Positions 8,881-27,165 of a DNA stretch of 38,666 nucleotides are shown in pieces. The notes under the pieces are model-generated. The model had not been told where the DNA came from. It saw only the letters and a list, made by a program, of their open reading frames with translations, and did no database searches. Position 1 is the stretch's first letter; the number at the start of each line of letters is the position of its first letter. The position numbers and the translations under genes are program-made. This stretch comes from an uncultured Clostridia bacterium. GTDB lineage: Bacteria; Bacillota; Clostridia; Christensenellales; Borkfalkiaceae. The DNA is taken from contig CANQMX010000017.1 of assembly GCA_947625095.1 (NCBI GenBank), forward strand, positions 1 to 38,666, given 5' to 3'.

Positions 8881-9927
8881 ATGGAACAGGAACTTGACCC
8901 CGAATTGCAAAAACAGCCCGAAGAAGCGGCCGAAGCGGAAGCCGCCGAGACGGCAGAAGCGGCGGAAGTCCCCGCGGAAGCGACGCCCGCCGAACCCACC
9001 TATCCCGAGATCGCCGCCGCGCTCGGCAAGTATTACGACGATCTGAGCCGCCTTATCCGCATCACCAAGGCGAAGGATGAGACGATCGCGAAGCTCAGCA
9101 AGGAAGTGCAGTCGTACCGCGAGGGATTTGCGATGAAACTCGCAAAGCCGCTTGCGACCGAACTCATTGCGCTCCGCGAAGATTACCGCAAGACGATGCG
9201 CGATGTGGATACCTATGCGAAGTCCGCCGCGGACGTCAAAAAGTACTGCGGGTACATCGTCTCCGACCTCGAAGACCAGCTCGCCAACTGCGGCGTGACG
9301 ATCGAGAACGACGTGTACTGCATCGGCGGCGTATCCATCTGGGAGAAGGAGTGCCGCAAGCAGACCGCCGCCTTTGCCCCCGTGGAGGCAGCCCCCGTTG
9401 CGGAGGCGGAGGAGACGACCCAAGGCGAGCCGACGCTTTCCGCCGTGCTTGCGCGCGTGGAGGCGGGCAATGCGCGCCTCGTCGCCCTGCTCACCGCAAA
9501 CGAACAGGCGGACGCCAACCTCCTCGGCTATGTGAACTATGCCGCCGCCATCGACGATAACTACGCCGACGCATTCCTCCTGCCGCTCTACCGCGCCCTC
9601 GCAACCGTGCAGATCGCAGTCCGCGAATATACCGACGCGCTGGGCGAACAGATCACGGAGGAGAACAAGGCGGAGAAGTATGCGGGCGCGCTGCAGATCG
9701 CGCTCGACGGCATCGACGGCATCCTCACGCAGGCGGGCGTTACCATCGTGACAGATCCCTCCGACAATTACGACCTTGCGACCAACCGCCTTGTGAAGGC
9801 CATCCCCACGGACGACCCCGCGAAGGATAAGAAGGTCGCCTTCCGCTACACCGACTGCTATCTCTACGATGGCAAGGTGCTTTATCCCTGTAAAGTTGAC
9901 GTGTACAGATACACGCCGAAAAATTAA
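8881..9927 (+). CDS. Tandem GrpE-like nucleotide exchange factor
   Basis: 348 residues from ATG 8881, chosen because GGAGG (8872-8876) precedes it; an upstream in-frame ATG at 8812 lacks one. After an A/E-rich acidic tail (1-40), residues 42-150 form a first GrpE-like unit: a long coiled coil, then LATELIALREDYRKTMRDV and an end at LEDQLANCGVTIENDVY. Residues 180-348 form a second, with LPLYRALATVQIAVREY, ALDGIDGILTQAGVTIV and a C-terminal beta hairpin YLYDGKVLYPCKVDV that matches the end of the GrpE beta-domain. GrpE normally works as a homodimer to release ADP from DnaK. A covalent tandem could be a built-in dimer. It opens the operon directly before the Hsp70 genes. Confidence 0.72.
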   Translation: MEQELDPELQKQPEEAAEAEAAETAEAAEVPAEATPAEPTYPEIAAALGKYYDDLSRLIRITKAKDETIAKLSKEVQSYREGFAMKLAKPLATELIALREDYRKTMRDVDTYAKSAADVKKYCGYIVSDLEDQLANCGVTIENDVYCIGGVSIWEKECRKQTAAFAPVEAAPVAEAEETTQGEPTLSAVLARVEAGNARLVALLTANEQADANLLGYVNYAAAIDDNYADAFLLPLYRALATVQIAVREYTDALGEQITEENKAEKYAGALQIALDGIDGILTQAGVTIVTDPSDNYDLATNRLVKAIPTDDPAKDKKVAFRYTDCYLYDGKVLYPCKVDVYRYTPKN

Positions 9928-9952
9928 AATTTTATGAAGGAGATAGAAAAAA

Positions 9953-11632
9953 ATGGCAAAAAAAATCGGTATTGACCTTGGTACGACCTACTCGGTGGTC
10001 AGCTATGTCGACGATACGGGCGTGATCACCAACGTGGAAAGCTCGGAAGGCGAAAAGACGACGCCCTCCATCGTGTACTTCGACCCCAACGGCACGGACG
10101 TTGTCGTCGGCTCGGCTGCCCGCGAGGCGGGCGCACTCGATCCCGATAAGATCATCGAGCGCGTCAAGAACTACATGGGCGACCCCAACTACATGAAGGA
10201 GATCAACGGACAGGAATTCTCCGCCAGCGCGATCTCTTCCATCATCCTCAAAAAACTTGTCTCCGACGCGGAAAAGTGGCTCGGCGGCGAGGAGATCGAG
10301 GGCGCCGTCATCACCTGCCCCGCTTACTTCGGCGACGCCGCACGCGAGGCGACGAGAAAGGCGGGCGAGGCCGTGACCCTCTCCAACGGGCAGCCCCTGA
10401 AAGTGCTCAAGATCATGGATGAGCCTACGGCTGCCGCCATCGCTTACGGCAACTCCCACCCCGAGGATATGCACAAGACGGTGCTCATCTACGACCTCGG
10501 CGGCGGAACGTTCGACTGCACCATCATGCGCCTCGACTTCGAAGGACAGGACCGACAGTACAAAGTCATCACGACGGGCGGCGACCACAAGCTCGGCGGC
10601 AAGGATTGGGATAAGGCGCTCACCGACTATGTGCGCTCCGAGTTCTGCAACCAGACGGGCTGCGACGAGGACGCCATCAAGGCCGACCCCGAGATGATCG
10701 TGTGGTTCAGCGAGGCATCCGAAAAGACCAAGAAGATGCTCACCCAGAAGGACGTCGCCACGATGACCCCCAACTACGACGGGCAGAAGGCGCGTATCGA
10801 AGTGACCCGCGACAAGTTCAACGAACTTACCCGCAGCCTCTTCGGGCAGACCACCATGCTCATCGACCAGATGCTCGAAAAGAAGGGCATGACGATGGCG
10901 GAGATCGACGAGATCATCCTCGTCGGCGGCTCTACCAGAATGAAGCAGGTCGAAGAGGGCCTCACCGACGCTTACAACAAGCCCCTCGTCTCCTTCGACC
11001 CCGATAAGGCGGTCTCCAACGGCGCGGCGCTCGTTGCGAGCGGCATGAACGTTGCCGATAACTTCGGCGGCGAAGGCGCGGCGGAAGGCGCAGGCGCTGC
11101 TTCCTCCGCGGGCGGCGCAACACTGACCCTCGGCGCGCAGACGACCAGCTTCGAAGGCGCGGGCGGCACGAGCAACGAGATCATCGAGCTCTGCACCAAG
11201 TCCTACTGCCTCAGATATAACGACCCCACCAGCGGGATGAAATTCGCCAACCTCATCAAGAAGGATACGCCTAAGCCTGCGCACGGCTCTACGCAGGATG
11301 TTTCGATCCTGCGCGACCATCTCCAACTCGGCGAGAGCGGGCAGATGTACAACTCCGTAGGTCTCTATATTCTCGAAAACGAGGAACTCACCGATGAAGT
11401 CCCCGAAGATAAGTGCGAAGCGCTCTACGAAGAGATGCCCATTCCCTTCGAACCGCCCGTACTCGGCGACGAGCCTGTGGAAGTCACCCTCGACGTGGAT
11501 ATCAACGGCCAGCTTGTTCTGACCCTCGTCGAACTCAAGACGGGCGTCCGCCACGAAGTTCACCCCATAAGAAAGGGCGGCGACGCGGCGAGCAAGGGTC
11601 TCGACCAGGTCTCCGGCTTCACGCTCGGCTGA
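9953..11632 (+). CDS. Hsp70-family ATPase without a lid domain
   Basis: 559 residues against about 600-640 for DnaK. The ATPase domain (1-385) is well kept: IGIDLGTTYS (phosphate 1), a lysine in VKNYMGDP at the place of the catalytic Lys70, CPAYFGDAA, EPTAAAIAYG, DLGGGTFDCT (phosphate 2, about 181) and LVGGSTRMK (adenosine site, about 323). After a G/A-rich linker the substrate part is short (about 165 residues) and divergent; it ends in a beta-domain-like INGQLVLTLVELKTG and has no helical lid. GAAGGAGAT sets the start. This is the most intact Hsp70 of the operon, presumably a specialised chaperone served by the adjacent GrpE-like and J-like proteins, not the general DnaK. Confidence 0.9.
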   Translation: MAKKIGIDLGTTYSVVSYVDDTGVITNVESSEGEKTTPSIVYFDPNGTDVVVGSAAREAGALDPDKIIERVKNYMGDPNYMKEINGQEFSASAISSIILKKLVSDAEKWLGGEEIEGAVITCPAYFGDAAREATRKAGEAVTLSNGQPLKVLKIMDEPTAAAIAYGNSHPEDMHKTVLIYDLGGGTFDCTIMRLDFEGQDRQYKVITTGGDHKLGGKDWDKALTDYVRSEFCNQTGCDEDAIKADPEMIVWFSEASEKTKKMLTQKDVATMTPNYDGQKARIEVTRDKFNELTRSLFGQTTMLIDQMLEKKGMTMAEIDEIILVGGSTRMKQVEEGLTDAYNKPLVSFDPDKAVSNGAALVASGMNVADNFGGEGAAEGAGAASSAGGATLTLGAQTTSFEGAGGTSNEIIELCTKSYCLRYNDPTSGMKFANLIKKDTPKPAHGSTQDVSILRDHLQLGESGQMYNSVGLYILENEELTDEVPEDKCEALYEEMPIPFEPPVLGDEPVEVTLDVDINGQLVLTLVELKTGVRHEVHPIRKGGDAASKGLDQVSGFTLG

Positions 11633-11665
11633 TTATACGGCAATATATATGGTAGTATGCGCCCA

Positions 11666-11685
11666 CCCGCCCCGTTTGGGGCGGG
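11666..11685 (+). other. Intercistronic hairpin between two Hsp70 genes
   Basis: CCCGCCCC-GTTT-GGGGCGGG, an 8-bp perfect stem without a T-run. It may slow decay or reduce read-through between the two Hsp70 genes. Confidence 0.55.
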
Positions 11686-11708
11686 CGGGATCTGCCATTT
11701 AATAGGTT

Positions 11709-13306
11709 ATGGGAAAATATATCGGAATCGATTTCGGCTCGGCCTATTCCTCCGTGAGTTTAAGGACGGGGGGAGGATCATAGGGGTGGAGAATACGGAG
11801 GGCGAAAAATTGACGCCCTCAACGCTGTGCTTTACGGCGGACGGCGTTTTTGCGGGAACGGTAGCCGATGAGTACGCCTCATCGGGATCGTACTTTTCCC
11901 GTTTCAAGCGGTATTTGGGCGACCCCGAATACACTGCGGAGGCGGAGGGCAAGGAGCTTTCGGCAAGCGCCCTCACTGCACTCGTACTCAAAAAACTTGT
12001 AAATGACGCCGAACTTCAGCTCGGCGATACCATAGCGGGCGCGGTCATCGCGTGCCCCGCAAATTTCGGAGACGCCGCCCGCGCCGCGCTCAAAGAGGCG
12101 GGAGAGGCGGTCACACTTTCGGACGGCAAGAAGTTAAAGGTCTTGCAGCTCATCGGCGAGGATGTGGCGGCGGCAAACGCCTATGCCGCGTCTGCGCACG
12201 GCGATATCAATAAGACCATTCTGCTCCTGGATCTCGGCGGCGGGTCATTCCGTTGCAGCGTCGTTAAGTTGCTGGGGGAGAAGTGCGACGTCCTCACTTC
12301 GGCGACCGACCCCGAACTCGGCGGAACGGCGTGGGATGAAAAAGTCCTCGGCCATGTTTGCACGGAGTTCTGCCGCGTGACGGAGACGAACGAGGAGGAA
12401 CTTCGCGCCGCGCCCGAATTTGAAGAGTTCCGCAGGGGGAGCGAAGCCCTCAAAAAGTTCCTCGCCACCAACGCTACGGCGACAAAACTGTTCACCTTCG
12501 GCGGAAAGAGGGCGCGCATCGAGATGACGGCGGCGCAGTTTGAGGAATGTACCTCCGACCTCTTCATGCGCGTGCGCGATTGCATCGACGCAATGTTGAA
12601 GGAAAGCAAACTCAAAGCGAATGACGTCGACGAGGTCGTGCTCACGGGCGGCGGCGCGCGGATGCAATTGGCGCAGGATCAGTTGGGCGCATACGGAAAG
12701 GCGTGCATCGTGTTCGACCCCGATAAGGCGGTCGCAAACGGCGCGGCGATCCTTGCGCAGAAGTACGCGGAGGCCACGCTCGCGCGCGGAGAAGGGGAAG
12801 CGGCGGGAGCCGTCGTCCTCGCTGCGCAGACCGTCCGCGCCACCAAGTCCTATGGATTAAAATGCTGTGATAGCAAGAAGGATTCCAACGGGAATTATTG
12901 CAATATTTTTGGGTGTGCCAACCTCATTTTCAAAGATGACGCACTCCCCGCAAAGGGGCTTTTGTCGGATTACTTCAAGAGGATCGGGCAGGAGTCACGT
13001 GTTATAATTGAAGCGGGGCATAATAGCGTGTGGACCACCATCCTTGAAAACGATTCCCGCGGGGAGAAACTCATACCGTACGAAGAATGTGAGGAACTCT
13101 ATGAAGATGCGGAAATTGAATTCGAGGAGCCGTTTCCTGTCGATACATTTATTGACATCGAGCTTGCGCTGGACGTCTCGGGGTTGCTGACGCTCACCCT
13201 CATTGAGACCGAAACGGGAAAACGCCACCCCATGTACCCCGTGAGAAAGGGCGGCAACGCGGCGAGCAAGGGAATGGAAGAGGTCGCAAACTTCAAGCTC
13301 GGCTGA
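11709..13306 (+). CDS. Degenerate Hsp70 paralogue with a frameshift at G6
   Basis: A diverged copy of the preceding Hsp70. The true N-terminus starts at ATG 11709 (MGKYIGIDFGSAYSSVS) but that frame stops at TAG 11781. The rest, from GGRIIGVENTEGEK, is open in the -1 frame to TGA 13304. The switch lies at six G (11768-11773); one more G would restore a single frame. The long frame can be read from ATG 11657, but its first 37 residues are unrelated to Hsp70. Active-site motifs are altered: DLGTT is DFGSA, GGGTFD is GGGSFR, VGGSTR is TGGGAR, while the lysine in FKRYLGDP remains. This suggests a pseudo-ATPase. A pseudogene, sequencing error, phase variation or programmed frameshift on G-GGG-GGA are all possible; the otherwise clean frame argues against old decay. 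Confidence 0.75.
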
Positions 13307-13403: not shown

Positions 13404-13817
13404 ATGGCACAATTGACGAACTATGCCGAACAAATGAAGAAAATGGTGGGGGGAAGCGACAATTATCTGTATGCGGGTTTCCCCAAACAGACGGCGGATC
13501 GCCTCGCCGTTACCTTCCTTGCGAATTGCTCGGCCGGGCAGATCGTACCCTTCGAAGAATGTGAGGAGATCTTTGCGGAGTAGGGCATCCCCTTTGACGA
13601 CCCCATTCCGGGGGAAACGCGCATCGACTTCGAAGTCGAATTGGACGGCGCGGAGCAACTTATCATCACCCTCATCGAGGTCAAGACGGGCAAACGCCAC
13701 GCTACGCACGCCGTAAGAAAGGGAAACGTGAACACTTCCGAATGGCGCAAATGCGGCATCGGAGCAAAAAATCATCATAGAATAAAAGCGGGCGGCCTGC
13801 GCCGCCGAAAAATATAA
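13404..13817 (+). pseudogene. Orphan Hsp70 substrate-domain fragment with in-frame TAG
   Basis: From ATG 13404 the frame gives 59 residues (to ECEEIFAE), then TAG 13581-13583, then 77 more codons to TAA 13815. The two halves together match the C-terminal substrate domain of both preceding Hsp70 genes: QIVPFEECEEIF, LIITLIEVKTGKRH and AVRKGN align with IPYEECEELY, LTLTLIETETGKRH and PVRKGG. There is no ATPase domain. It is either a third, 5'-truncated copy broken by a nonsense mutation, or a stand-alone substrate domain that needs read-through. TAG is used as an ordinary stop elsewhere in the window. The ribosome site is weak (GAAAGG). Confidence 0.7.
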
Positions 13818-15986: not shown

Positions 15987-18900
15987 ATGGCAGAAGTAAG
16001 GACGCAACAAGAACTCTCCTCGGCAAGTTTTAACTACTTCATCGCGTTAAAACTCGGCGCGAAGGAGACGAATACCAAGGTGATCGAAAAGGCGATCGCG
16101 GAGATCAAATCGCTCACCGACGACGACGCATACGGCGAACGGCTCAAAAAACTGACGGCCGATATGACGGAAGTGCTCATCAACGACGCGGTCTTCGACC
16201 CCTCGAGAAACGGCTATGTGCCCAATTCGGGCGCGCGCAAGCGCGAATCGGACGCGGCGGTCAAGTTCAAACTCGCGGAGATGATGGAGCTTGTCAAGAA
16301 CATCTGCCTCAACAACGGCATGATCTTCAAGAGCGAATTGCAGGCTCTGCGCAACAATGCCAACAAAGAGGCGAACTACTATTCCTTCCCCGAACTCGAA
16401 AAGGAGTTTTTGGCGTTCAACGCCTCGGGCGCGGTGAAGTACGTCGACGATATCACGGGCATCAAAATTCCCTTTAAGGATTTCGACCGCATCTCCGAAT
16501 CGCTCACCTCCTCCCTCAAAATGACCACGCTGTACGAATTCCTCGGCGTCTCGCCCACGGCGAGCGAGCAGGAGATCTCCTCCGCCAAGCAGAAGGCGTA
16601 CAACGACTACATGGCAAAGGGCGACCGCAGTTTCCGTACCCTCGGCAAGACGCTGTGCGGCGACGTGGAGACCATCCTCCTCGTGAAGGACGCGAGAAAG
16701 CAATACGACTACTATGTAAAACTGCGCGACAAGGTGTGGAAGCAGTTTGCCCTGCGCAGACAGTTCGGCGCAAAGTCCATCTCTCTCAATGAGTTCTATT
16801 CCTTCGCGCAGATCGTCATGGATACCTTGAAGCTGGGGCTTGACGAGGTGCAGACCATGCTCGGCGCGGGGCTGAAAACGTACGGACTTACCGTGGCGGG
16901 CGGCGACAAGGAGGGCACGGGCGCAAAGGAGCTTGAGATCTGCCCCTACCCCGACTGCGGAAAGATCTACGAAGCGGGGGCAAAGGTCTGCCCGCACTGC
17001 GGAAAGGCGCTCGAAGTGCTGTGCTGGAACTGCAATTCCCGTATGCCCTTCACCATGAAGTCCAAGACCTGCCCCACCTGCGGCGCGAGCTATCAGAACA
17101 AGGATAAATTCACGGTGGCGACGGGCGAGCTGGATAAGCTCCTCGCCCTGCCCGTGCCCGATCTGACGCGGGTGCAGCAGTCGCTCATGGCGCTCAAAAA
17201 TCTCGTGCCCGACTACCGCAAGGCGGCCTCGGGCGTCATTGCGCGCAAGGTGGCGGAGTACGAAAAGGAACTCGAACGCCGCGCGCAGATCGAGCGCACC
17301 AAGGGGGAGGCGTACCGCGAGGAGATGAAGGCGGTGAACGCCCTCGTCGGCGGCAAGAACTACCTGCAAGCAAAGAGCGCCGCCGAACAGGTGCGCAGGA
17401 AATACCCCGACTACAACCTCGCCGAGACCAACAAGACGATCGCGGAACTCGACGCCGTCATCCAGAAGGCGCAGCGCGAACTTGCGACCGCCCGCCAGCT
17501 CATCACGCAGGGCAACGAGGACGGCGCAGTCTCCGCCGTCATGCGCGCCCTCGATATCGTAGCCGACTACAACGAGGCGCGGCAGTTCATTGCAAAATAT
17601 CCGCCCAAGGCGCCCGCCGCCCTGCGCGTGACCGTGGCGGGGCAGAACGCCAAACTCGAATGGCAGATGCCCGCCTCCCGCGCGAACACCACATATTACG
17701 TCATCCGCAAGGTCGGCTCCGCCCCCTCGAACACCGAGGACGGTACGGCGATCGCCCGCGGACTTTCCATCGACTTCTATGAGGATAAGTCGGTCGCCGC
17801 CGCCACGCGCTACTTCTACGGCGTGTACTCCGAGCGCGGCGGGGTGAAGTCCAACCTCACCGTCTGCCCCACACCTGTGCAGTTCTTTACCGATGTCTCC
17901 AACATCCGTCAGGAACTCGTCGAGGATAAGATAAGCGTCAAGTGGGACGCGCCCAACAACGTAAAGACCATCGAAGTCTGGAAGAAGCGCGGCGTCGTTG
18001 CCCCCCAGCAGGCGGGCGAGGGACAGCGCGTTCAGGCCGACCTCAACGGGTTTACCGATACCGACGCGGGGGAGATCAGTTACCTCATCATCTGCCGCTA
18101 CGACGCGGGCGGAACGCTGTACTCCTCCAAGGGCATCCAGCGCACCTTCAAGCGCTACGAAATTCTGAAAAAGCCCGAACAGGTGGAGATCGCGCAGCTC
18201 ACCAACACCGAATTCTCCTTCAAGGCGAAGGCTTCGGGCAAGCCCCGCCTGCTGTTTGCGAACGAAAAACTCGCCTGCCGCACCGACGTCGTGCAGGAGG
18301 CGGCTCTCTACACCGAGGCGGTGAAGGGGGCAAGGGAACTGCGCATCAACTACGCGGGGGAGGAGATGAGTTTCGCCCTGCCCGTGGACGCGGTGGGGTA
18401 CGTCTATCCCGTGTTCTACAACGACCAGCTCTTCATCGTGTCCCCGCCCACGCTCGTCAACACCGTCTGTCCCGTCCGGGATCTCCGCTATGCGGAGCGC
18501 GGCAACGCGGGGATGCTCACGGGCACGTTGCACCCGTCGCTCACCGCCGTCATCGCCAAGATCTCCGAGCGCGGCTTTGTAAAGAGCTTCGATGAGCCGG
18601 CCGATACCATGCGCCTCTCCGCGGAAGAGTTCCGCTCCAAGGGCGGGATGTCTTTGAACTTAAAGCGCAATGTGGAGTACTACATCACCGTATTCGGCGA
18701 GGCGGAACTCGGCGGCAAGAAACTGATGACGAGCGCCGTCTCCCTCGACGAGGCCATCTGCCAGCGCGACAGAGTGCCCCTTCTGTACTGCTTCAAGTAT
18801 ACGGCGTCGCCCACCAAGGACTTCAAGGTGACGATAGAATTCAGCGCCGAGAGCGAGGCGGAAGTGCCCGACCTTCTGCTCATGCGCGGCTATCCCCGCC

Positions 18901-19136: not shown

Positions 19137-20252
19137 ATGGGAAAATTTACCTGTCCTTATTGCTACGGCGATCACACGCTTCTCGACTGCGAGGTCAAGT
19201 GCTCCTACAACATTCCGGGCACGGCGGCAACGTGCAAGCGCGGCGTGCCGAAAAGCCCCGATGGGCTTATCCCCAACAACAAGAAGAGTTCCTGCATGGC
19301 GTGCAAGGACGCGAGCAAGCTCGTGTTCTGCCCCGAATTACATAAGGAGATCCCGCGGGAATTCCTCGACGGGCAGAGCCTGCCCATCGCGCTCATCGGC
19401 GCAAAGGCCTCGGGCAAGTCCAACTACATCGGCGTGCTCATCAACGAGATCCGCCACAAGATGTCCATCCGCTTCAACTGCACGCTTTCCATCAGCTGCA
19501 GCGAGGAATCGCGTTCCTATTACCAGAATTATTACTATCGCCCCATCTTCGAGGAGAGCAACGTGGTCACGGCGACCGACGCCGGCGAGATCCCGCCGCT
19601 CATCTTCCCCGTGCGCTTTTTGGATAATAAGAACCGCATCAAGAACATGGCCACGCTCACCTTTTACGATACCGCGGGCGAGAATTTCGACAGCACGGAG
19701 GAAATGCTCGTCTACAACCGCTATGTTCCCAACTCGCGCGGCATCATCCTGCTTCTCGACCCCCTGCAAGTGGATTCCATCCGCAAACAGCTCACGGGCA
19801 AGATGACCCTTCCCAACAAGAATACCGACGTAAACGAAGTGCTCTCCCGCGTTGTGGATAATATCCGCCGCGTCAAGAACGTGAAGGGGCAGATCAAGAT
19901 CCCGCTCGCCATCGCGTTCACCAAACTCGATGCGCTCGAACAGTTCGATATTCTGCCGCAGGAGAGTTGCCTGAGGGAGGAATCGGAGCACGTCAAGCGC
20001 GGCGTATTCGTCAATTCCGATTTCGAGGCGTGCGACAACGAGATGCGCGCCCTCCTCGAAAACTTCCTCGACGCAGAGCTCATCCAGCTCATGAAAAACT
20101 TTGAAAAGAGCGCGTTCTTCGGCGTTTCCTCGCTCGGCGAAGTTCCGTCGGGCGGTGTAAAACTGACCTCCGATCGGGTAAAACCCCGCCGCGTTCTCGA
20201 TCCCCTGCTGTGGCTTCTTGCCGAAAACAACTACATCAAGAGAGTGAAATAA
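19137..20252 (+). CDS. Zinc-ribbon TRAFAC-like GTPase
   Basis: 371 residues, soluble. A cysteine-rich module (CPYC at 6, further Cys pairs to about 62) precedes the GTPase domain. G-motifs are clear: P-loop GAKASGKSN (88-96), G3 DTAGE (about 178), G4 TKLD (about 262) and G5-like SSLG near 325. The glutamate after DTAG stands where Ras has its catalytic Gln, so hydrolysis may need help from a partner. It resembles, from memory, families called double-GTPase (DO-GTPase) in conflict-system surveys, which pair a soluble and a membrane GTPase; the second is encoded at 23203. AGAGGG precedes the ATG. Confidence 0.82.
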   Translation: MGKFTCPYCYGDHTLLDCEVKCSYNIPGTAATCKRGVPKSPDGLIPNNKKSSCMACKDASKLVFCPELHKEIPREFLDGQSLPIALIGAKASGKSNYIGVLINEIRHKMSIRFNCTLSISCSEESRSYYQNYYYRPIFEESNVVTATDAGEIPPLIFPVRFLDNKNRIKNMATLTFYDTAGENFDSTEEMLVYNRYVPNSRGIILLLDPLQVDSIRKQLTGKMTLPNKNTDVNEVLSRVVDNIRRVKNVKGQIKIPLAIAFTKLDALEQFDILPQESCLREESEHVKRGVFVNSDFEACDNEMRALLENFLDAELIQLMKNFEKSAFFGVSSLGEVPSGGVKLTSDRVKPRRVLDPLLWLLAENNYIKRVK

Positions 20253-20328
20253 CGCCGCGCAACCGCCGCGCGGAAATTTGTCCCACCCCCCAAAAGGGTT
20301 CGAATACAAGGAAATCAAGGAGAAAAGA

Positions 20329-22992
20329 ATGAAGGCAAGCCAATATCTCTATACGTCATGGAAAAATGCGCCCAACCACGGGTTCAGCATCTATTCGACA
20401 AGTCCCGATATCACGCGGGAAGAGAGTATGCACATCGCGCGCGTCATGAAGTACCGTGCGCCCTCCGATCTTCCCTATCAGCCGACGGAGGAGCAGATCG
20501 CCACGCTCTTCCCCCGCAATACCGCGTACTTCCGCCTTCCCACGGGCAGATATTGCATCGCGCAGTCTGCCTATGTCGGGCACGAGTACAAGGGCTTCGA
20601 GGAGGCGGGCAGAATGGGGAACTACCTCACGCACGCCTATATCTTCGATGAACCCGCCGAATTCTATCCCACAACGTTCATCGGCGATCCCATCTTCCGC
20701 AGCGATCTCACGATCGACGAGTGGCGGGCGACCAATCCCGCGCCCCTGCCCGTCGTGGAACTTCCCGCGCGGGGAAAGGCGGCGGCCGACGTCTCCGCCT
20801 TCATCAAGGGCAAGGAAGAGCTCTTGGCAAAGCTCGTGCAGGCCGTTCTGGACGGAGGGGACAAGACCATCTTCGTCAACGATGTGCACGACAATATGAA
20901 ACTGTGGTATGCCGCCCTCGGGCTGTGCCTGCCCAAGCGCTACAACGCGAAATTCACCTTTAATACATTCTCTTTCGAGGATATCAACGCCAACTTCAAT
21001 GTGCCCGTGGATTGCCGCCTCACCGTCGTCAACCTCTCGGCGGGCGGTTTCACGCCCGTGAATTGGCAGCAGAAGATGACGGCGGGCGCGATCGTCTTTG
21101 ACTTCAAGACGCAGACCTTCTCGCCCATCACGCCCAAGAGATATGCCGAGAACATCGCGGTGGCGCTCACGCGCGACGCAAGCCGCACCGCGGGCGTCGT
21201 TGCGGAGATGGAGCGCATCGCGACGGCTACGGGGACAGACCTCGATACCGCCTTCGATGTCCTCGCGGCGGAGTCGTTCGACTTTGACGCCTTCCCGACC
21301 ATCGATGCGCTCGCAAAGGCGTACGATCTCGCCCTCCGCGATCCCACCTTCCGCAAGGAGAAGTTCGCCGAGGCCGCGCTTCCCCGCCTCATCGGGGATT
21401 GCTTCGCGCCCGCGGCAAACGCCCTCTTAAAGTCGTTCTATCCCATTTTATCCGAGGCGAGCCGCAACCGCGTCGTCGCGGAGGTCTCCCAAAAATATCT
21501 CGCCCAGCCCGCGCGGGATGTCGCGAGCTACCTTGCAGGCATCACGCAGAGCGCGCCCTTCCCGTGGCGCGATTTCGCCCTGTACCACTACGCGCAGGAG
21601 GAGGGCATGGCGTACTTCCGCAATTACAGCGCCGACTTCGCCAAGGCAAACCTGCTCATCGACGCCGCCGTCAAAGCGGAGGCCGACCTCGAGCGCGTCT
21701 ATGGGAAGGACACCGTAAAGAAGTACTTTGCAAAGCTCGTGGAGTACTACGCCGTGCACGGCGAAAACGACAAGGTCAGAACGCTGCTCACGCGGGCGAC
21801 GTCGTTCTCCAACTACATCGCGCTCGTGCAGGAGGCGGTGGAAGTCGCCGCGCAGGGGAGCATCGACCTCGATTGGTACTTCGAACTCGTCGTGATGCAG
21901 ACCGCAAACCCCGCCACCGTCGAAAAGAACCTCAAATTCCTCATTCAGAACTATCCCAATCGGGACGGTCTCATCCGCAAATACGACCGTCTCGCCGCGG
22001 GCGCTCTCTTTGCCGCGGACGCGGCGCTCCGCCGCGATCCCACGATCACCGACTTCTTCGTGGATCTCGATAAACTCCGCCTCACCAGCAAGGATATGGG
22101 CATCCCCGAACTTGCCAAGTTCTATGTGGATTTCTATCTCGGCGGGCAGGATAAGAACGGCACAATGCTCACGCAGATGGACAAGTACTTCGGGCGCACC
22201 CCCGAGGCGGATCGCCCCGCCGCAGCCATCTCGCTCTACAAGGCGCTCGCGCGCGCGCAGACGCCGCAGGGCGACGTGCTCGGCCGCATTTACCGCTATG
22301 CCTTCGCGAATGTGAAACTCGGCCGCACGGAGGAACTGCTCGCGGATCGGGCGATCGGCGCGGACTATGTAAAACTTGCCGAGGCCATGGCGGCGGCAAA
22401 TTATGATACGGTAAACTTCACCGTGGCGCGTCTCGGCGCACAGTTCGCGGAACAGAACTTCCCCAAACTCGTGCAGGAGGCCAAGCGCGGCGAACTGTAT
22501 GCGTCGCTGTTCGGCGGCAAGGATACGCAGCGGCTGGTGGATTGTTTCAGCGCGGCATATTTCAAGCGCGTCGCCGCCCTCGCGGCATTTGCCGAGAAAA
22601 AGGCGGCAGACAGGCGCGCCGCAGCCGATGAAAAGATGGTGCCCGAGGAGATCTTCGGCAAGATCTTATATCCGCTCGTCAACGCGGTAAACTATGCAAA
22701 ATTCTTTGCGGAGGGGCTTCTCTCCCTCAAAAAGCAGGAGGAATTGCAGGGTACGGTTGCATATATAATATACTATGTCGCGACGCAGAAAGACCCCAAC
22801 AAGCAGGTTTACGACGCGGCGCTCAAAGGATATTTCGATGCGCTCGGCAAGGGCGACAGAAAGAAACTGTTTGATTATGCCAAAAAATTCAGCGGACAGG
22901 GCGGGGACGCGGTGACGCGCTATCTCGACGCCTATATCGCCGCCCAAACGACGGGAGGGCTGTTCTCCCGCCTCTTCGGAAAGAAAAAATAA
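20329..22992 (+). CDS. GTPase-associated protein, GAP1-like
   Basis: 887 residues from ATG 20329 (AAGGAG upstream; a longer TTG start at 20278 is less likely). The first 130 residues, SQYLYTSWKNAPNHGFSIYS and later YCIAQSAYVGHEYKGFEEAG with NYLTHAYIFD, recall the N-terminal domain type 2 of GTPase-associated protein 1. The remaining 700 residues are helical, without catalytic motifs I recognise, and end in a basic FSRLFGKKK tail. In related loci these proteins accompany a GTPase pair and are thought to modulate them. Its place between the two GTPase genes fits that role. The identification is from memory of the family and needs a profile search. Confidence 0.68.
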   Translation: MKASQYLYTSWKNAPNHGFSIYSTSPDITREESMHIARVMKYRAPSDLPYQPTEEQIATLFPRNTAYFRLPTGRYCIAQSAYVGHEYKGFEEAGRMGNYLTHAYIFDEPAEFYPTTFIGDPIFRSDLTIDEWRATNPAPLPVVELPARGKAAADVSAFIKGKEELLAKLVQAVLDGGDKTIFVNDVHDNMKLWYAALGLCLPKRYNAKFTFNTFSFEDINANFNVPVDCRLTVVNLSAGGFTPVNWQQKMTAGAIVFDFKTQTFSPITPKRYAENIAVALTRDASRTAGVVAEMERIATATGTDLDTAFDVLAAESFDFDAFPTIDALAKAYDLALRDPTFRKEKFAEAALPRLIGDCFAPAANALLKSFYPILSEASRNRVVAEVSQKYLAQPARDVASYLAGITQSAPFPWRDFALYHYAQEEGMAYFRNYSADFAKANLLIDAAVKAEADLERVYGKDTVKKYFAKLVEYYAVHGENDKVRTLLTRATSFSNYIALVQEAVEVAAQGSIDLDWYFELVVMQTANPATVEKNLKFLIQNYPNRDGLIRKYDRLAAGALFAADAALRRDPTITDFFVDLDKLRLTSKDMGIPELAKFYVDFYLGGQDKNGTMLTQMDKYFGRTPEADRPAAAISLYKALARAQTPQGDVLGRIYRYAFANVKLGRTEELLADRAIGADYVKLAEAMAAANYDTVNFTVARLGAQFAEQNFPKLVQEAKRGELYASLFGGKDTQRLVDCFSAAYFKRVAALAAFAEKKAADRRAAADEKMVPEEIFGKILYPLVNAVNYAKFFAEGLLSLKKQEELQGTVAYIIYYVATQKDPNKQVYDAALKGYFDALGKGDRKKLFDYAKKFSGQGGDAVTRYLDAYIAAQTTGGLFSRLFGKKK

Positions 22993-23010: not shown

Positions 23011-23032
23011 GGGATAAAAGGAGAATTCTTAT

Positions 23033-23200: not shown

Positions 23201-23202
23201 CC

Positions 23203-24624
23203 ATGGAAAAACAACCCGCAAAGGTAAATTACTTTTTCGGCCAATGTTACAGAGACCTCGGAAACACCATCAGGACGACGTTTGCCAACCTCGGTGATTC
23301 CATCGTCAATTGCGCCGAACACATCGCGGACGTCTGGTCGGATGGGGGGTATTCAAAGCCGCTCGGCATCATTCAGATCGGCTTTTTCATCGGCCTTCTC
23401 ATCTGCTCCTCCATCATCTCCACCATATTCTGCGTCGTATTCTCCATCATTCACGTCCTGTTTACGGTGCTCGTCATGGCGTTCATCTACCTGTGGTTCA
23501 CCTTCCTGTTCCTTCTGGACTCCCTCATGCGGCACATACACAAGATCGTGTCCTCCTGTCCGAACGATCAGAGAAAGTTCGCTCTGCCGCACTACCGTTG
23601 CCCCACCTGCGGCAAGATCCACACCAAACTCCGCCCCTCCAAGTACGGTATTCTGAAGCGCGAATGTACCTGCGGTACCCGCCTTCCCACCACCTTCTTC
23701 AACGGGCGTCAGCGGCTTGAAGCCATCTGCCCCTATTGCGGCTATTCGCTCACCAACGGCGGCTTCCACGTCAACATCAGCGTGCCCGTCATCGGCGGAC
23801 CCAGCTCGGGCAAGACGTGCTTCATCAACCAGGCCATCGGCGAACTCGAACGCATCGCCGAGCCCGAACTCGGCTATGAGTACGAATACATAGCAGGCAG
23901 CGACAGTCTGCCCGAAAACCTCCAACTTCTGAGCCAGGGACAGCTTCCGCAGAAGACGAGCGAAATGCGCCTCGTGTACTACGAATTCTATTTCACGCCC
24001 AAGAAGAAAAAGGTCAAAAACGAGATCTCCCTCTGCGACGTCGGCGGCGAAGTCTATATGGATAGTTCGCTCCTCTCCGAGCAGATCGGTTACAGCCTCG
24101 CAAACGGATATCTCATGGTCATCGACCCGCTCTCCATCGCGGCATACCGCAAGGAAGTGGAACAAAAGATCTCCACAAGCGGCTACACGGGGAGCGTTAC
24201 GCCCATCGACGAAGTGCTCTCGGTGCTCATCAAGACCATCGAGAATATGCGCAACTACGACGCGCGCAAGAAGGTGGAAGAGAACCTCGCCATCGTGTTC
24301 TCCAAGTGCGATATCCCCGGCCTCGACGAGAAGATAGGGGATAAGGCGGTGGATGAATACATCGCCAATTCGGCGGATAAGAAGATCACGCGTATGCAGG
24401 CGAGGAACAAGATCTGCGAGCAGTTCCTCATCGACTACGACGAGGCAGACTTTGTCAACGCAGTCCGCTCCAAGTTCACCAACGTGCAGTTCTTCACGAG
24501 CAGCGCGCTCGGGCACAACGTGGATGGCACGGCGTTCCAGCCTTCGGGCGTCGCCGATCCCATCCTGTGGGTCATCGATAAGAAGAGCCCCACCATCGAC
24601 TTCAAGAAGCGTTGGGCGCAGTGA
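23203..24624 (+). CDS. Membrane-anchored zinc-ribbon GTPase
   Basis: 473 residues. Residues about 52-112 hold two hydrophobic spans (IIQIGFFIGLLICSSIISTI and VLFTVLVMAFIYLWFTFLFL), so the GTPase is held at the membrane. Zinc-ribbon Cys pairs (CPTC, CTCG, CPYCG; about 132-177) precede the G-domain: P-loop GGPSSGKTC (198-206), G3 DVGGE (about 281), G4 SKCD (about 367), G5 SSAL (about 433). The domain order and the shared C-terminal DPILWVIDKK / DPLLWLLAEN show that it is a paralogue of the soluble GTPase at 19137. I infer a heterodimeric or sequential GTPase pair, one cytosolic and one membrane-bound. Confidence 0.83.
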   Translation: MEKQPAKVNYFFGQCYRDLGNTIRTTFANLGDSIVNCAEHIADVWSDGGYSKPLGIIQIGFFIGLLICSSIISTIFCVVFSIIHVLFTVLVMAFIYLWFTFLFLLDSLMRHIHKIVSSCPNDQRKFALPHYRCPTCGKIHTKLRPSKYGILKRECTCGTRLPTTFFNGRQRLEAICPYCGYSLTNGGFHVNISVPVIGGPSSGKTCFINQAIGELERIAEPELGYEYEYIAGSDSLPENLQLLSQGQLPQKTSEMRLVYYEFYFTPKKKKVKNEISLCDVGGEVYMDSSLLSEQIGYSLANGYLMVIDPLSIAAYRKEVEQKISTSGYTGSVTPIDEVLSVLIKTIENMRNYDARKKVEENLAIVFSKCDIPGLDEKIGDKAVDEYIANSADKKITRMQARNKICEQFLIDYDEADFVNAVRSKFTNVQFFTSSALGHNVDGTAFQPSGVADPILWVIDKKSPTIDFKKRWAQ

Positions 24625-25829
24625 TGGCAGAAGAATATTGGCGCGGCAGGCTGGGCGCGGCGGAACAACAGGCCTATGACGAAATGAAGGCGGCGCTTCA
24701 ATGCGGGCAGACGGATGTCCCTCTGCCCGGCGGCGTGCGCGATTTTATGGGCTGTTTCGAAGCCGTCACCTTCGACCACCCCGAATTCTATTGGGTGGGA
24801 AGTCAGTGCGGCGTCTCGCGCGGAAGGGGCGGGATGGTGGCGCAGTTCCAGCGCATCTATTCCGCCTTTGAAACCAACAAGCTGGATATCAAGATAGATG
24901 TCGCCAGGGATACGGTGAAGAGCCGCGCGCAGGGCATTTCCGATGAGCGCGAGCTCTGCCGCGTCGTCGCGGGGTATCTCCTCGAAAACGTCACCTATCA
25001 GATAGACGTGCGCATGAACCAAAACGCGGCGGCGGCGCTGTGCTTCTACAAGGCGCAGTGCACGGGCATTTCCCTTGCCGCAAAGTTGCTTTTGGATTCC
25101 CTCGGCGTGTGGTGTATCGCCGTCAACGGCGAGGTCTCGTCGGGCGGCAGGGGCGGGCCGCATTGTTGGAACATCGTGCGGATCGGCGGAAATTACTACC
25201 ACTTCGACGTCACCTCCATGCTCGGCGCAAACGGCGGCGCGGGCGGCGCTCCCGCCAAGAAGCCGTACACCTATCTCTATTTGAGTTACAGCGACGCCAA
25301 GATCTCGTCGACGCACCGCTGGAACAAGCAACTCCCGCCCTGCACCGATACGCGCTATGACGAGGCGGACGGCTTCTCCTCCGCCCCCGCACAGCCCGCG
25401 CAACAGCCCGCATATCAACCGCAACAGCCCGCGCAGCAGCCCCAACAGCCTGCGCAGCCGCAGTCGCGGTTCGGCTTTCGCTGGCCGTTCTCGCGCATGG
25501 GCGGGGCAAAACAGCAGCAACAACAGCCGCAGCAGCAGAATTACGGCAGGCCGCAACAACAGCAGCAGACCGCGCCCGCTCGGCAAGGCGCGCCCGCGGG
25601 CATGAAGTCGGTGAGTTCGCAATACGAGATCAAGCAACTCTTCCCCGCGCAGCCTTCGGGGTCGTTCAAGACGACGTTCTACTATGCGACGGAGGCAACA
25701 TCGGAAAAACAGGCAAAACTCGTCGAGGAGGCGATCCGCAGTTATTATACGGCGCACAACGTCGGCGGGACGTTCCACTACTCCTACACGGGCAACGTGT
25801 GGACGATAGAATTACAGTTCGAGGTATGA
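24624..25829 (+). CDS. Transglutaminase-like cysteine protease-fold protein
   Basis: 401 residues from ATG 24624, whose A overlaps the upstream stop (TGATG), so translation is coupled. The transglutaminase-like triad is visible: Cys146 in AQCTGIS, His180 in PHCWNI, Asp195 in YHFDVTS, with the usual order and spacing. Residues about 255-330 are a Pro/Gln-rich low-complexity linker (AQQPAYQPQQ, KQQQQQPQQQ). The last 75 residues form a small alpha/beta module ending WTIELQFEV. Members of the fold act as proteases, peptide crosslinkers or peptidases. Here it could be the effector or a maturation protease of the system. No signal peptide, so it acts in the cytosol. Confidence 0.85.
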   Translation: MAEEYWRGRLGAAEQQAYDEMKAALQCGQTDVPLPGGVRDFMGCFEAVTFDHPEFYWVGSQCGVSRGRGGMVAQFQRIYSAFETNKLDIKIDVARDTVKSRAQGISDERELCRVVAGYLLENVTYQIDVRMNQNAAAALCFYKAQCTGISLAAKLLLDSLGVWCIAVNGEVSSGGRGGPHCWNIVRIGGNYYHFDVTSMLGANGGAGGAPAKKPYTYLYLSYSDAKISSTHRWNKQLPPCTDTRYDEADGFSSAPAQPAQQPAYQPQQPAQQPQQPAQPQSRFGFRWPFSRMGGAKQQQQQPQQQNYGRPQQQQQTAPARQGAPAGMKSVSSQYEIKQLFPAQPSGSFKTTFYYATEATSEKQAKLVEEAIRSYYTAHNVGGTFHYSYTGNVWTIELQFEV

Positions 25830-25830
25830 T

Positions 25831-26181
25831 ATGGGTGCGGCAAAAAACAAGGTGATCGCCGGCGATTACAGCGGCTGGGATGTCGTTGCGGGGCACGGCA
25901 AACTGCACTTCATGCACAGGCTCAAGAGGGTCGTATTGGATAGAACGACGGTCACGCACTATGAGGCGGTGGATGCGCGCAGCGGCAATTCCTTTTGGGG
26001 GAGTTTTCTGCGCGGCTATGTGGGCAATGCCGTTCTCGGGCCTGCGGGGCTGTTCGCCGCAACGTCATCGGCGGCGGGCAAGCGCGCCGTGCTCCTCTCG
26101 GTGGAATTTGCAAGCGGCGAACGCTCGCTCATCGAGGTGGACGATGGCGTCTACCGCAAATTTTTGCAAGTTCTGTTCTGA
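25831..26181 (+). CDS. Small PH-like / glycine-zipper protein
   Basis: 116 residues. An N-terminal beta-rich half (VIAGDYSGWDVV, KLHFM, VVLDRTTVTHYEAVD) is followed by a glycine-rich hydrophobic helix (GYVGNAVLGPAGLFAATS) and two more strands ending SLIEVDDGVYRKFLQVLF. This matches a widespread type of small protein with a PH-like or bPH-like fold interrupted by a glycine zipper, which may touch membranes. The start is 2 bases after the upstream stop. Function unknown. Confidence 0.6.
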   Translation: MGAAKNKVIAGDYSGWDVVAGHGKLHFMHRLKRVVLDRTTVTHYEAVDARSGNSFWGSFLRGYVGNAVLGPAGLFAATSSAAGKRAVLLSVEFASGERSLIEVDDGVYRKFLQVLF

Positions 26182-26202
26182 ATTTGTAAAGGACTACACA
26201 CG

Positions 26203-26225
26203 CGGCGGTGAAATAGAGACCGCCG
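26203..26225 (+). other. Intercistronic hairpin
   Basis: CGGCGGT-GAAATAGAG-ACCGCCG, a perfect 7-bp stem in the 63-base gap before the last gene of the operon. There is no T-run; it may tune expression or mRNA stability of the final cistron. Confidence 0.5.
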
Positions 26226-26244
26226 GAACATAAAAGGAGGTCGT

Positions 26245-27165
26245 ATGTTCGGCAGCAGAAAAGTTGTCATCTACCAGCGGCCGAGCGCGGGGGAAGTGTT
26301 CGGCACGATCCTCGTCGTTCTCATCGTGGGGGCGCTCGTCATCGGGGTCGCCGCGTGGATAAGTTGGTGGATCCTCGTTGCCTTTCTCGGCGTCGGCGTA
26401 CTCATCGGGCTTGTATATGCGCTCTTCGTGTATATCCGCGCCTTCATTCACTCCGTGGGCAACCTCGGGGGGTATGCTCCGCGCAGCACGGGCGCGGTGA
26501 TGTGCGTCATTGAAAAACTCTTTGCGCTCAACGCAATGACCGCCGTCGAGGCGTTCAACACCAATCTCTACAATGCGAGCGGTGCGCTCGCGCGGGGGCA
26601 GGCGTACCGTTTCCTCTCCTTCCGCAAGTGGATGTGGTATGTCGCTGCGCTCTCCATGGTCGTGCTCGGCGTCGTGCTGATCGCCGCGATCATCATTTTG
26701 CAATTCGCCCTCTTTCTCGGGCTTGTTGCGGCGCTTGTCGGCGTCATTGTCGCCATCTGCTTCCTCTACTTCGCCGCCTCTCTCTTCTACGGCTTGGGCT
26801 ATGCAACGGCATATTTCTTCGGCGCTTGCCGCAGCGAATTGGATTTTTCGGGCTACACGTTCACGAAATATGTCACCTTCCACGATGTCGGCTTTTGCCT
26901 CGGAACGGCGTTCACGTCGCTGGGGCGGATGCTCTCGGAATTTTGGCGCAACACGCTGGATCGCGCCCGCGACAACTTCAACGACGGTCTTTCCCGCCCG
27001 TTGAAATCGCTGTACCGCTGGCTGGAACTCGTCTCGCCCGTCGCGCTCGTTCTTTGGGCGGCGGTATGGACGGTGCTCGGCTGCATCTTCCTGCCCATCG
27101 TGCTCTTCCTCATGTGGCTGGGGCTTCTGCTCTTCACCTGCGTCATCAAGATCTTCGTTCACTGA
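26245..27165 (+). CDS. Polytopic membrane protein, last gene of the operon
   Basis: 306 residues with a strong ribosome site (AAAGGAGGTCGT). Hydrophobic spans are seen at about 19-45 and 48-68 (FGTILVVLIVGALVIGVAA; ILVAFLGVGVLIGLVYALF), 130-155, 157-192, and two near the C-terminus (260-302), giving about six. The central part (residues 75-130 and 200-255) is soluble. No transporter or enzyme motif is recognised. By position it is the likely membrane component of the system, perhaps working with the 55-residue protein and the membrane GTPase. Confidence 0.72.
   Translation: MFGSRKVVIYQRPSAGEVFGTILVVLIVGALVIGVAAWISWWILVAFLGVGVLIGLVYALFVYIRAFIHSVGNLGGYAPRSTGAVMCVIEKLFALNAMTAVEAFNTNLYNASGALARGQAYRFLSFRKWMWYVAALSMVVLGVVLIAAIIILQFALFLGLVAALVGVIVAICFLYFAASLFYGLGYATAYFFGACRSELDFSGYTFTKYVTFHDVGFCLGTAFTSLGRMLSEFWRNTLDRARDNFNDGLSRPLKSLYRWLELVSPVALVLWAAVWTVLGCIFLPIVLFLMWLGLLLFTCVIKIFVH

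What the first reader, a model, noticed from the sequence alone, without database searches (positions are those of the whole stretch)
8881..27165. Candidate undescribed system: dedicated Hsp70 cycle fused to a double-GTPase module
Seen: one operon carries a GrpE-like protein, an intact Hsp70, a degenerate Hsp70, an Hsp70-vWA fusion, a J-like scaffold, a soluble and a membrane GTPase, a GAP1-like protein, a transglutaminase-like protein, a small and a large membrane protein, and ends in one terminator. Known: vWA, paired GTPases and GAP1-like proteins are grouped as NTP-dependent conflict systems in comparative surveys. Inference: the chaperone cycle remodels or arms a GTPase-controlled membrane effector, perhaps with the transglutaminase fold as output. 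The exact gene set with three Hsp70-derived genes is, to my knowledge, not characterised.
Basis: partly seen in the sequence, partly recalled or inferred. Interest (0 to 1): 0.95.

Follow-up and report, generated by a model that had tools for sequence, protein, structure and literature searches.

The report
Hsp70-driven double-GTPase membrane system
A gut bacterium carries a block of eleven genes that combines its own set of Hsp70-type chaperones (one fused to a vWA domain) with paired GTPases and a protease-like protein; the block sits at different chromosomal sites in scattered gut bacteria and likely works as a membrane-side alarm against invaders, a kind of system that was catalogued by computer in 2020 and for which our literature searches found no experimental test.

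Summary
The gene set is real: eleven co-directional genes (8881-27165) between a promoter-like site and a terminator-like hairpin, plus an upstream LRR gene that travels with them (7610-8443). Its core (GrpE-like, lidless Hsp70, Hsp70-vWA, J/zinc-ribbon/FN3 hub, soluble DO-GTPase, GAP1, membrane DO-GTPase) recurs in 22 loci found through the soluble GTPase. Of 201 family genomes, 6 have GAP1, and the GrpE-like gene occurs in those 6 only. It is not undescribed: Kaur et al. 2020 (PMC7159879) defined this Hsp70 theme of GAP1-N2 systems. Added here: a vWA domain stands where the Hsp70 lid would be (DxSxS motif in 20 of 22 sequences); HPD is missing in 24 of 24 hub proteins; the Hsp70 substrate domain diverges faster than its ATPase domain, and extra, partly decayed Hsp70 copies recur (the window's third Hsp70 is one); add-on genes differ between loci: a transglutaminase/cysteine-protease fold (C-H-D in 12 of 12), a TraD-like ATPase, or nuclease-toxin plus SUKH genes. 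Most likely mechanism (inferred, 0.42): a chaperone-gated GTPase switch that arms exchangeable effectors at the membrane. The flanks do not look like defence islands; function is untested. New variant of a known kind.

The parts
7610..8443 (+). g0: 277-aa protein with short LRR_5 (BspA-type) region; 437 bp before g1, travels with the unit
   Evidence: Pfam LRR_5 1.8e-7; 85% identical upstream of the operon in G055, homology starts at 7640
8611..8639 (+). promoter-like site before g1
   Evidence: 11 of 12 consensus bases; 8559-8646 conserved in G055 at 77%
8881..9927 (+). g1: GrpE-like nucleotide-exchange factor
   Evidence: GrpE 6.6e-5, below cut-off; the ORF at this place in L038 is GrpE 1.2e-6, above cut-off
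9953..11632 (+). g2: lidless Hsp70 (intact ATPase motifs + beta substrate domain)
   Evidence: HSP70 2.9e-85; C-terminus vs DnaK substrate domain, hhalign 95.9%, ends at column 116 of 245
11657..13306 (+). g3: degenerate, fast-diverging copy of g2; ATP-loop segment out of frame
   Evidence: HSP70 1.2e-53 from profile position 96
13404..13780 (+). relic of another Hsp70 C-terminal domain, with an internal stop
   Evidence: 48% identical to g3 over 73 aa
13840..15945 (+). g4: Hsp70-vWA fusion, vWA where the lid would be
   Evidence: HSP70 8.9e-101, VWA 3.7e-18; middle part vs DnaK substrate domain 95.0%
15987..19091 (+). g5: scaffold with J domain (no HPD), double zinc ribbon, helices and FN3 array
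19137..20252 (+). g6: soluble zinc-ribbon DO-GTPase
   Evidence: DO-GTPase2 5.2e-7; alignment A1
20278..22992 (+). g7: GAP1 (GAP1-N2 + GAP1-M); likely start 20329
   Evidence: 1.6e-21 and 3.9e-8; start
23203..24624 (+). g8: membrane DO-GTPase
   Evidence: DO-GTPase2 3.6e-9; hydrophobic block 53-109
24612..25829 (+). g9: transglutaminase/cysteine-protease-like protein with C-H-D; likely start 24624
   Evidence: 9crn 5.3e-22; C150, H184, D199 invariant in 12 of 12
25831..26181 (+). g10: 116-aa protein, no known family
   Evidence: found in 7 loci, window included
26245..27165 (+). g11: helical membrane protein of a small family
   Evidence: 19 proteins found, its own included; model pLDDT 82.7, no PDB match at E <= 0.001
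27179..27198 (+). terminator-like hairpin; homology with G055 ends at 27204

Best explanation
This operon is a GAP1-N2 double-GTPase system of the Hsp70 kind, in which two lidless Hsp70s, a GrpE-like factor and a J/FN3 hub are predicted to sense abnormal or foreign protein and to switch a soluble-plus-membrane GTPase pair, which would then arm interchangeable effectors at the membrane. Shown: the gene content, the recurring seven-gene core, the ATPase, GTPase, vWA DxSxS and C-H-D motifs, the missing lid and HPD, the faster divergence of the Hsp70 substrate domain and of GAP1-C than of the rest of the same proteins, the different add-on genes, and the different chromosomal sites. Inferred, step by step: (1) g2 holds a client through its lidless beta domain and is reset by g1; (2) g4 reports the loaded state by docking its vWA metal site on the g5 hub, the J domain serving as a docking module because it lacks the HPD that stimulates Hsp70 ATPase; (3) GAP1 couples the hub to g6, which pairs with membrane-bound g8; (4) the GTP-bound pair releases or activates the local effector: here the g9 protease fold with g10 and g11, elsewhere perhaps a nuclease toxin otherwise held by its SUKH partner.
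For: Core recurs in 22 loci (g6 was the search anchor, so its own presence is by construction). Co-occurrence in 6 of 201 family genomes. Published precedent for the core and its placing among conflict systems. Different flanks in the window, G055 and G009. Contrast inside proteins: g2 ATPase domain 97% vs C-terminus 72% identical between window and G055 (dN 0.02 vs 0.20), against 97% and 88% in the housekeeping DnaK; GAP1-N 93% vs GAP1-C 76%. Extra g2-type copies in the window, L028, G110 and L036. Effector-like add-ons: C-H-D in 12 of 12; SUKH + Tox-GHH after the membrane GTPase in L031, and SUKH-2 + Tox-HNH-HHH between g2 and g4 in G110. Precedent for chaperone-mediated phage sensing: bNACHT25 needs DnaJ (PMC12169576, abstract and outline seen).
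Against: No sign of a defence island: of 57 flank and add-on ORFs, PADLOC matched five models, each in one or two ORFs (best 1.1e-14; not followed up), and the 25 of 43 Pfam families shown were mostly metabolic or housekeeping. In the operon's own proteins (10 of 11 scanned) the best PADLOC match is LmuB at 9.5e-5 over part of g5, with LmuA at 0.029 in g6. TGase is in 12 of 20 loci with that region in view, and L030/G922, L106 and L110 show no recognisable effector. Toxin genes were seen in 2 of 22 loci. No dN/dS above 0.27 in ten unit genes, and the control GAPDH is just as divergent (82% identical, dN 0.147, dN/dS 0.27), so the unit as a whole does not evolve unusually fast. Synonymous distances (0.37-0.69) overlap GAPDH (0.55) and lie only mildly below DnaK (0.77), so transfer between window and G055 rests on the different sites. 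No experiment.
Confidence: 0.42

Rival explanations
1. A dedicated assembly or export machine for surface or secreted proteins: the lidless Hsp70s and the hub would deliver clients to a membrane GTPase gate, and toxins, repeat-bearing membrane proteins and the TGase would be cargo or processing factors used in competition between gut bacteria.
For: Membrane GTPase in 20 of 20 loci with that region in view; multi-helix membrane proteins with large polar parts in L025, L029 and L036; TraD/VirD4-like ATPase in L025 (TrwB_AAD_bind 1.7e-39), two further TrwB_AAD_bind matches among the 57 ORFs scanned (ORFs not named) and ORFs of the same size and place in L024 and L031; SUKH-toxin pairs.
Against: No pore, pilus or secretion channel was recognised in the ORFs scanned; TGase has no signal peptide by eye; loci L106 and L110 carry no recognised cargo gene.
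Confidence: 0.25
2. An envelope-stress or proteostasis response: a client-occupied Hsp70 switches the GTPase pair to protect the membrane, without any role against invaders.
For: Complete NEF/Hsp70/J-like set; a published passage links DO-GTPases to membrane-related stress in Psp operons (PMC11237479, one passage read); ordinary genomic flanks.
Against: Patchy presence (6 of 201), different chromosomal sites, toxin-immunity genes in two related operons, and hub proteins without HPD (24 of 24) fit a housekeeping stress role poorly.
Confidence: 0.2
3. A contact-dependent or polymorphic toxin locus in which the chaperones only hold the toxin inactive.
For: Tox-HNH-HHH + SUKH-2 inside the G110 operon, Tox-GHH + SUKH-1 at the end of the L031 operon, SUKH-1 alone in L027.
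Against: No toxin or immunity family was found in the window's operon; such genes were confirmed in 3 of 22 loci; the two toxin ORFs are short (207 and 184 aa) with only the toxin domain recognised.
Confidence: 0.08
4. Chance neighbourhood of unrelated chaperone and GTPase genes.
For: TGase-like genes do occur elsewhere in the family (44 of 201 genomes at E <= 0.001), and one solo J-type gene exists.
Against: The core recurs in 22 loci, including loci recorded as Bacillota, Spirochaetota and Fibrobacterota.
Confidence: 0.01

Closest known systems
[quoted passage not shown] outline, passages, sections 27 and 29 read)
   Same: DO-GTPase pair (one with zinc ribbons, one membrane), GAP1-N2, FNIII protein fused to a J domain, Hsp70 and GrpE, extra Hsp70 copies; firmicutes among the hosts.
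   Different: The parts read do not mention an Hsp70-vWA fusion, the missing lid and HPD, a TGase gene in this theme, or SUKH-toxin and TraD-like add-ons; Figure 6B and the source data were not available to us.
GAP1-N2 tubulin theme (same paper)
   Same: DO-GTPase, GAP1, vWA and FNIII parts; three genomes of family f34 carry loci of this look (L104, L107, L108).
   Different: Tubulin-like proteins in place of the Hsp70 cycle; the tubulin reading of these three loci rests on recalled motifs, not on a family search.
DnaK-DnaJ-GrpE chaperone cycle
   Same: Same three families; ATPase motifs kept.
   Different: Lid absent, J domain without HPD, a glycine/serine-rich stretch in g2 where DnaK has DVLLLD; the host has a separate housekeeping DnaK.
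CoCoNuT type IV restriction systems with Hsp70-like and VWA parts (PMC11090510, passages read)
   Same: Hsp70-like and VWA proteins in predicted conflict operons.
   Different: McrB GTPase, nucleases and coiled coils; the passages read name no GAP1 or DO-GTPase.

Membership tests
GAP1-N2 DO-GTPase system, Hsp70 theme | TRAFAC DO-GTPase with conserved Glu in Walker B | tested here: met
   PF19993 above cut-off in g6 and g8; the G-E of DTAGE (g6) and DVGGE (g8) is kept in 20 of 21 g6 rows and 24 of 25 g8 rows in view
GAP1-N2 DO-GTPase system, Hsp70 theme | GAP1-N2 protein next to the DO-GTPase | tested here: met
   GAP1-N2 1.6e-21, directly after g6; GAP1 recognised in 19 of 21 loci in view, weak in L039, not in L038
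GAP1-N2 DO-GTPase system, Hsp70 theme | FNIII-repeat protein fused to a J domain | tested here: met
   profile match to J domains and FN3, predicted fold with FN3 array
GAP1-N2 DO-GTPase system, Hsp70 theme | HSP70 with GrpE | tested here: met
   HSP70 2.9e-85; GrpE below cut-off in the window but above it in L038; the g1 alignment found no GrpE structure
GAP1-N2 DO-GTPase system, Hsp70 theme | second HSP70 without peptide-binding domain (subset) | tested here: inconclusive
   g3 is degenerate and keeps a C-terminus; ATPase-only copies occur in G110 and L028
GAP1-N2 DO-GTPase system, Hsp70 theme | membrane GTPase with four N-terminal and one C-terminal TM | tested here: inconclusive
   one long hydrophobic block 53-109 by simple hydropathy, no C-terminal one
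GAP1-N2 DO-GTPase system, Hsp70 theme | role in biological conflict | not testable with these tools
   prediction in the paper; no experiment found in six literature searches
Canonical Hsp70-J-NEF chaperone | HPD motif in the J domain | tested here: not met
   no HPD in the first 330-400 residues of 24 of 24 g5-type proteins
Canonical Hsp70-J-NEF chaperone | helical lid on the substrate domain | tested here: not met
   alignments of 11 g2 and 12 g4 sequences match DnaK only up to columns 116 and 107 of 245
Known anti-phage system (PADLOC-DB 2.0.0) | clear model match or defence-gene neighbourhood | tested here: not met
   best own match LmuB 9.5e-5 over part of g5; neighbourhood
Polymorphic toxin locus | toxin with immunity gene | tested here: not met
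   none found in the window's operon; present in G110 and L031
Papain-like transglutaminase/cysteine-protease fold | C-H-D triad in the right order | tested here: met
   invariant in 12 of 12 and within the region aligned to 9crn; no Pfam match

The most novel reading that the evidence does not exclude
A bacterial immune receptor built from Hsp70: the lidless, fast-diverging substrate domain is the sensor of invader proteins and is renewed by tandem copies that decay next to it, an Hsp70 whose lid became a metal-dependent vWA docking domain passes the signal on, and a GTPase pair at the membrane fires whichever effector the local operon carries, protease or nuclease.
Probability: 0.15. Interest if true: 0.88.

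Novelty: new variant of a known kind. Interest (0 to 1): 0.56.

Why it matters
It would show that the Hsp70 cycle, normally a general folding machine, can be rebuilt into a client-gated switch for a GTPase pair: no lid, no HPD, and a vWA domain in the lid's place. The seven-gene core, the differing add-on genes and the minimal loci found here make the 2020 prediction directly testable with single-gene removals. The part is not rare: one protein search found 254 relatives of the g4 C-terminal part, and the best 120, the ones listed, all carry both HSP70 and VWA domains.

Tried and rejected
Defence island: PADLOC and Pfam scans of 57 flank and add-on ORFs gave five scattered PADLOC models and mostly housekeeping Pfam families among the 25 of 43 shown. 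Virus or plasmid carriage: no relative of g6 in the phage records or IMG/VR contigs searched; two Rhodococcus plasmids at 25.5% identity. Regulatory RNA: no Rfam match at gathering score in 7000-28000. g11 fold search: no PDB match at E <= 0.001. Third Hsp70 as a core part: rejected, since G055 lacks it. Locus L040 was dropped from all counts: a 111-base stretch of g6 inside a cobalamin gene, likely an assembly chimera. A clean empty site was not found; the GAPDH neighbourhoods fetched from relatives show only that the unit is absent there. Solved-structure search with the GrpE-like alignment found nothing, and with the g6 alignment only two antibody chains, taken as chance.

Limits: L021-L039, L106 and L110 were found through g6, so the survey favours its close relatives and cannot show g6-less loci. 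Counts are of loci in view; L022, L024, L026, L028, L032, L033, L036 and L039 are cut by contig or fetch ends. The records are titled MAG, so the Treponema (L035) and Fibrimonas (L032, 7.5-kb contig) assignments could be binning errors. For the SUKH-like ORF of L029 there is similarity by eye only, no Pfam run. Not every add-on ORF was identified.

Full report
What is there. Eleven genes run on the + strand from 8881 to 27165. Gaps are 1-63 bp, except 533 bp between g3 and g4 and 210 bp between g7 and g8; g8 and g9 overlap. A promoter-like site lies at 8611-8639 and a terminator-like hairpin at 27179-27198 (simple consensus scans, with 10 promoter-like sites found against 6.9 in shuffles and 31 terminator-like against 24.2). 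Pfam names HSP70 (g2, g3, g4), VWA (g4), double zinc ribbon (g5), DO-GTPase2 (g6, g8), GAP1-N2 and GAP1-M (g7) above cut-off, and GrpE (g1) below cut-off. g9 matches a transglutaminase-related NCBIfam model far below its cut-off, but its 12-sequence alignment matches PDB 9crn at 5.3e-22, with C150, H184 and D199 invariant. g9, g10 and g11 match no Pfam family. The host genome (1.78 Mb, 37 contigs) has a separate housekeeping DnaK.

Extent of the unit. DNA similarity to the nearest relative, G055, spans 7640-27204 in pieces of 77-93% identity and stops six bases past the terminator; it is interrupted at g3 and the relic. The unit thus includes gene 7610-8443, an LRR_5 protein that is 85% identical in G055. 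Beyond the ends the neighbours differ: GAPDH, a YhcG nuclease and a histidine kinase in the window; glycyl-radical-enzyme-like and ABC-transporter genes in G055; FeoB-like and TsaD genes in G009 (some of these names are read from the sequence by eye). Synonymous distances of ten unit genes between window and G055 are 0.37-0.69, against 0.55 for GAPDH and 0.77 for DnaK. That does not prove transfer; the different sites are the stronger evidence.

One system. In 201 genomes of the family GAP1 is found in 6. The GrpE-like gene is found in the same 6 and no other. Full-length J/FN3 is found in the same 6 (744 bits or more); of the 62 genomes that one search counts, one more (G040, 190 bits) has a solo J-type gene between genes that look like housekeeping ones, and the remaining 55 have matches of at most 34 bits, nearly all to the zinc ribbon. 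TGase is a broader family: 44 of 201 genomes at E <= 0.001, the six system genomes on top (125 bits or more, next 71). In 396 genomes of the order 6 have the soluble GTPase at E <= 1e-20; in 398 of the phylum 10 have a match at E <= 0.001, of which three that I looked at (G576, G222, G305) have a tubulin-type locus and one (G472) an Hsp70-type locus.

Anatomy of 22 loci. The set is the window, L021-L039, L106 (G472) and L110 (G950), all but the window found through g6; L040 was dropped. Counting only loci with the place in view: g1 17 of 17 (L038 by Pfam), g2 19 of 19, g4 21 of 22 (absent between g2 and g5 in L032), g5 22 of 22 (weak, 54-124 bits, in L038, L039, L106 and L110), g6 22 of 22 by construction, GAP1 recognised in 19 of 21 (L039 weak, L038 not), g8 20 of 20, TGase 12 of 20 (L036 is cut at its 3' end), g11 in 8 and g10 in 7. 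The order g1-g2-g4-g5-g6-g7-g8 holds in the loci in view except L032 (no g4), L035 (g8 before g7), L038 (an extra GTPase gene before g5), and L106 and L110 (g8 first); some loci have doubled g2, g4, short J-type or g8 genes. In L110 the seven core genes are followed directly by genes that look like housekeeping ones. Record titles name rabbit, sheep, goat, deer and buffalo samples, and, beside Clostridia, a Treponema, a Spirochaetaceae, a Fibrimonas and an Oscillospiraceae ('Lapin' read as rabbit).

How the chaperones differ from DnaK. The C-terminal part of g2 (11 sequences) and the middle of g4 (12 sequences) match the DnaK beta substrate domain (hhalign 95.9% and 95.0%) but stop at columns 116 and 107 of 245, before the lid; in g4 the vWA domain follows. 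The DxSxS motif of the vWA metal site is present in 20 of 22 g4 sequences; both L039 copies lost it (in L022 and L033, cut at the start, it is seen in the alignment, while the scan missed it). The ATPase motifs of g2 and g4 are kept in nearly all sequences in view; exceptions are the degenerate copies, and in g4 of L106 and L110 my pattern for the adenosine motif found nothing. The J domain of the family is supported by a profile match to solved J domains (1.3e-5), and g5 gives a confident model (pLDDT 86.7, pTM 0.39), yet none of 24 g5-type proteins has HPD in its first 330-400 residues. The FN3 array is supported by Foldseek (fibronectin fragments at about 3e-9, low TM-scores).

What evolves fast. 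Between window and G055, g6 is 98%, g5 and g4 95%, g2 88%, GAP1 78% and TGase 81% identical. The control GAPDH is 82% identical with dN 0.147, higher than any unit gene, so the unit as a whole is not unusually fast; DnaK has dN 0.054. The contrast lies inside proteins: in g2 the ATPase domain is 97% and the C-terminus 72% identical (dN 0.02 against 0.20), in DnaK the same halves are 97% and 88%. In 15 of 15 pairs of the six genomes the drop from ATPase domain to C-terminus is larger in g2 than in DnaK, by 3 to 20 points; the pairs are not independent, and g2 is the faster protein overall. Extra g2-type copies occur in the window (g3), L036, L028 and G110; the tree places them among g2 sequences, three of the four on long branches (the base of the g2 group is poorly resolved). 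I read this as repeated duplication and decay; that it renews a sensor is inference.

Add-on genes. Between g2 and g4: g3 and a relic in the window; a SUKH-1 protein in L027 (3.3e-12); SUKH-2 (1.9e-12), a Tox-HNH-HHH nuclease domain (3.5e-43) and an ATPase-only Hsp70 in G110. Between g5 and g6: a TraD/TrwB-like ATPase with a partner in L025 (1.7e-39) and ORFs of the same sizes and place in L024 and L031; one search counts two TrwB_AAD_bind members in a set that contains the L024 and L031 ORFs but does not name them. Around g8: extra GTPases, small membrane proteins, and multi-helix proteins with a polar part in L025, L029 and L036. At the 3' end: TGase with or without g10 and g11, or SUKH-1 (8.9e-14) + Tox-GHH (2.5e-17) in L031, or nothing recognisable (L030, L110).

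Comparison with print. Kaur et al. 2020 state that a second theme, about 14% of GAP1-N2 neighbourhoods, mainly in actinobacteria and firmicutes, has HSP70 and GrpE, in a subset a second HSP70 without peptide-binding domain, and an FNIII protein fused to DnaJ or TPR. The window belongs there. The parts read do not name an Hsp70-vWA fusion, the missing HPD and lid, or a TGase in this theme; the figure and source data were not held. Searches by the family names and by Hsp70, vWA and phage-defence terms listed no paper that I recognised as an experimental study of this system.

Mechanism and verdict. I commit to a chaperone-gated GTPase switch that arms exchangeable effectors (0.42), with export machine (0.25) and stress response (0.20) as main rivals. 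Against my reading stand the ordinary flanks, loci without any recognisable effector, the GAPDH control and the lack of any experiment. It is a new variant of a known, untested kind.

Noticed in passing
L020:5849-7011 (G110) and L031:16425-17491: Nuclease toxin domains (Tox-HNH-HHH, Tox-GHH) next to SUKH immunity-type genes inside or at the end of the operon, immunity gene first.
   Followed up: partly
L024:5887-9940, L025:5888-9978, L031:7391-9937: TraD/VirD4-like ATPase (Pfam match shown for L025) with a partner of about 400 aa between the J/FN3 and GTPase genes, with two further unknown ORFs in L024 and L025.
   Followed up: partly
L036:18390-21139, L025:15685-17130, L029:17260-19323: Membrane proteins with several helices followed by a polar part, some with 'GNGHT'-like repeats; no Pfam family in those tested except a weak COX1 match in L029.
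   Followed up: partly
window 15987-19091 and 19137-20252: Weak PADLOC matches to Lamassu models (LmuB 9.5e-5 in g5, LmuA 0.029 in g6); not pursued.
   Followed up: no
window 6566-7555: YhcG/DUF1016 PD-(D/E)XK nuclease gene just outside the unit; no match to it in the G055 stretches compared.
   Followed up: no
window 31538-35005: One 1155-aa ORF with three solute-binding stretches, a permease domain and an ABC ATPase, a whole importer in one chain.
   Followed up: no
window 27333-27995 and 28025-28645: Two neighbouring minus-strand genes of similar length without any Pfam match, just past the terminator.
   Followed up: no
window 37629-38525: Tyrosine recombinase gene about 10 kb downstream of the unit.
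   Followed up: no
L109:8470-9504 (G040): Solo J-type gene (N-terminal third of g5) in a genome without GAP1: a remnant or an independent user.
   Followed up: partly
L040:10001-10111: 111 bases of the g6 start inside a cobalamin-synthesis gene of a Lachnospiraceae bin; likely an assembly chimera.
   Followed up: yes
window 11660-11695: GC-rich inverted repeat without a T run between g2 and the degenerate g3.
   Followed up: no
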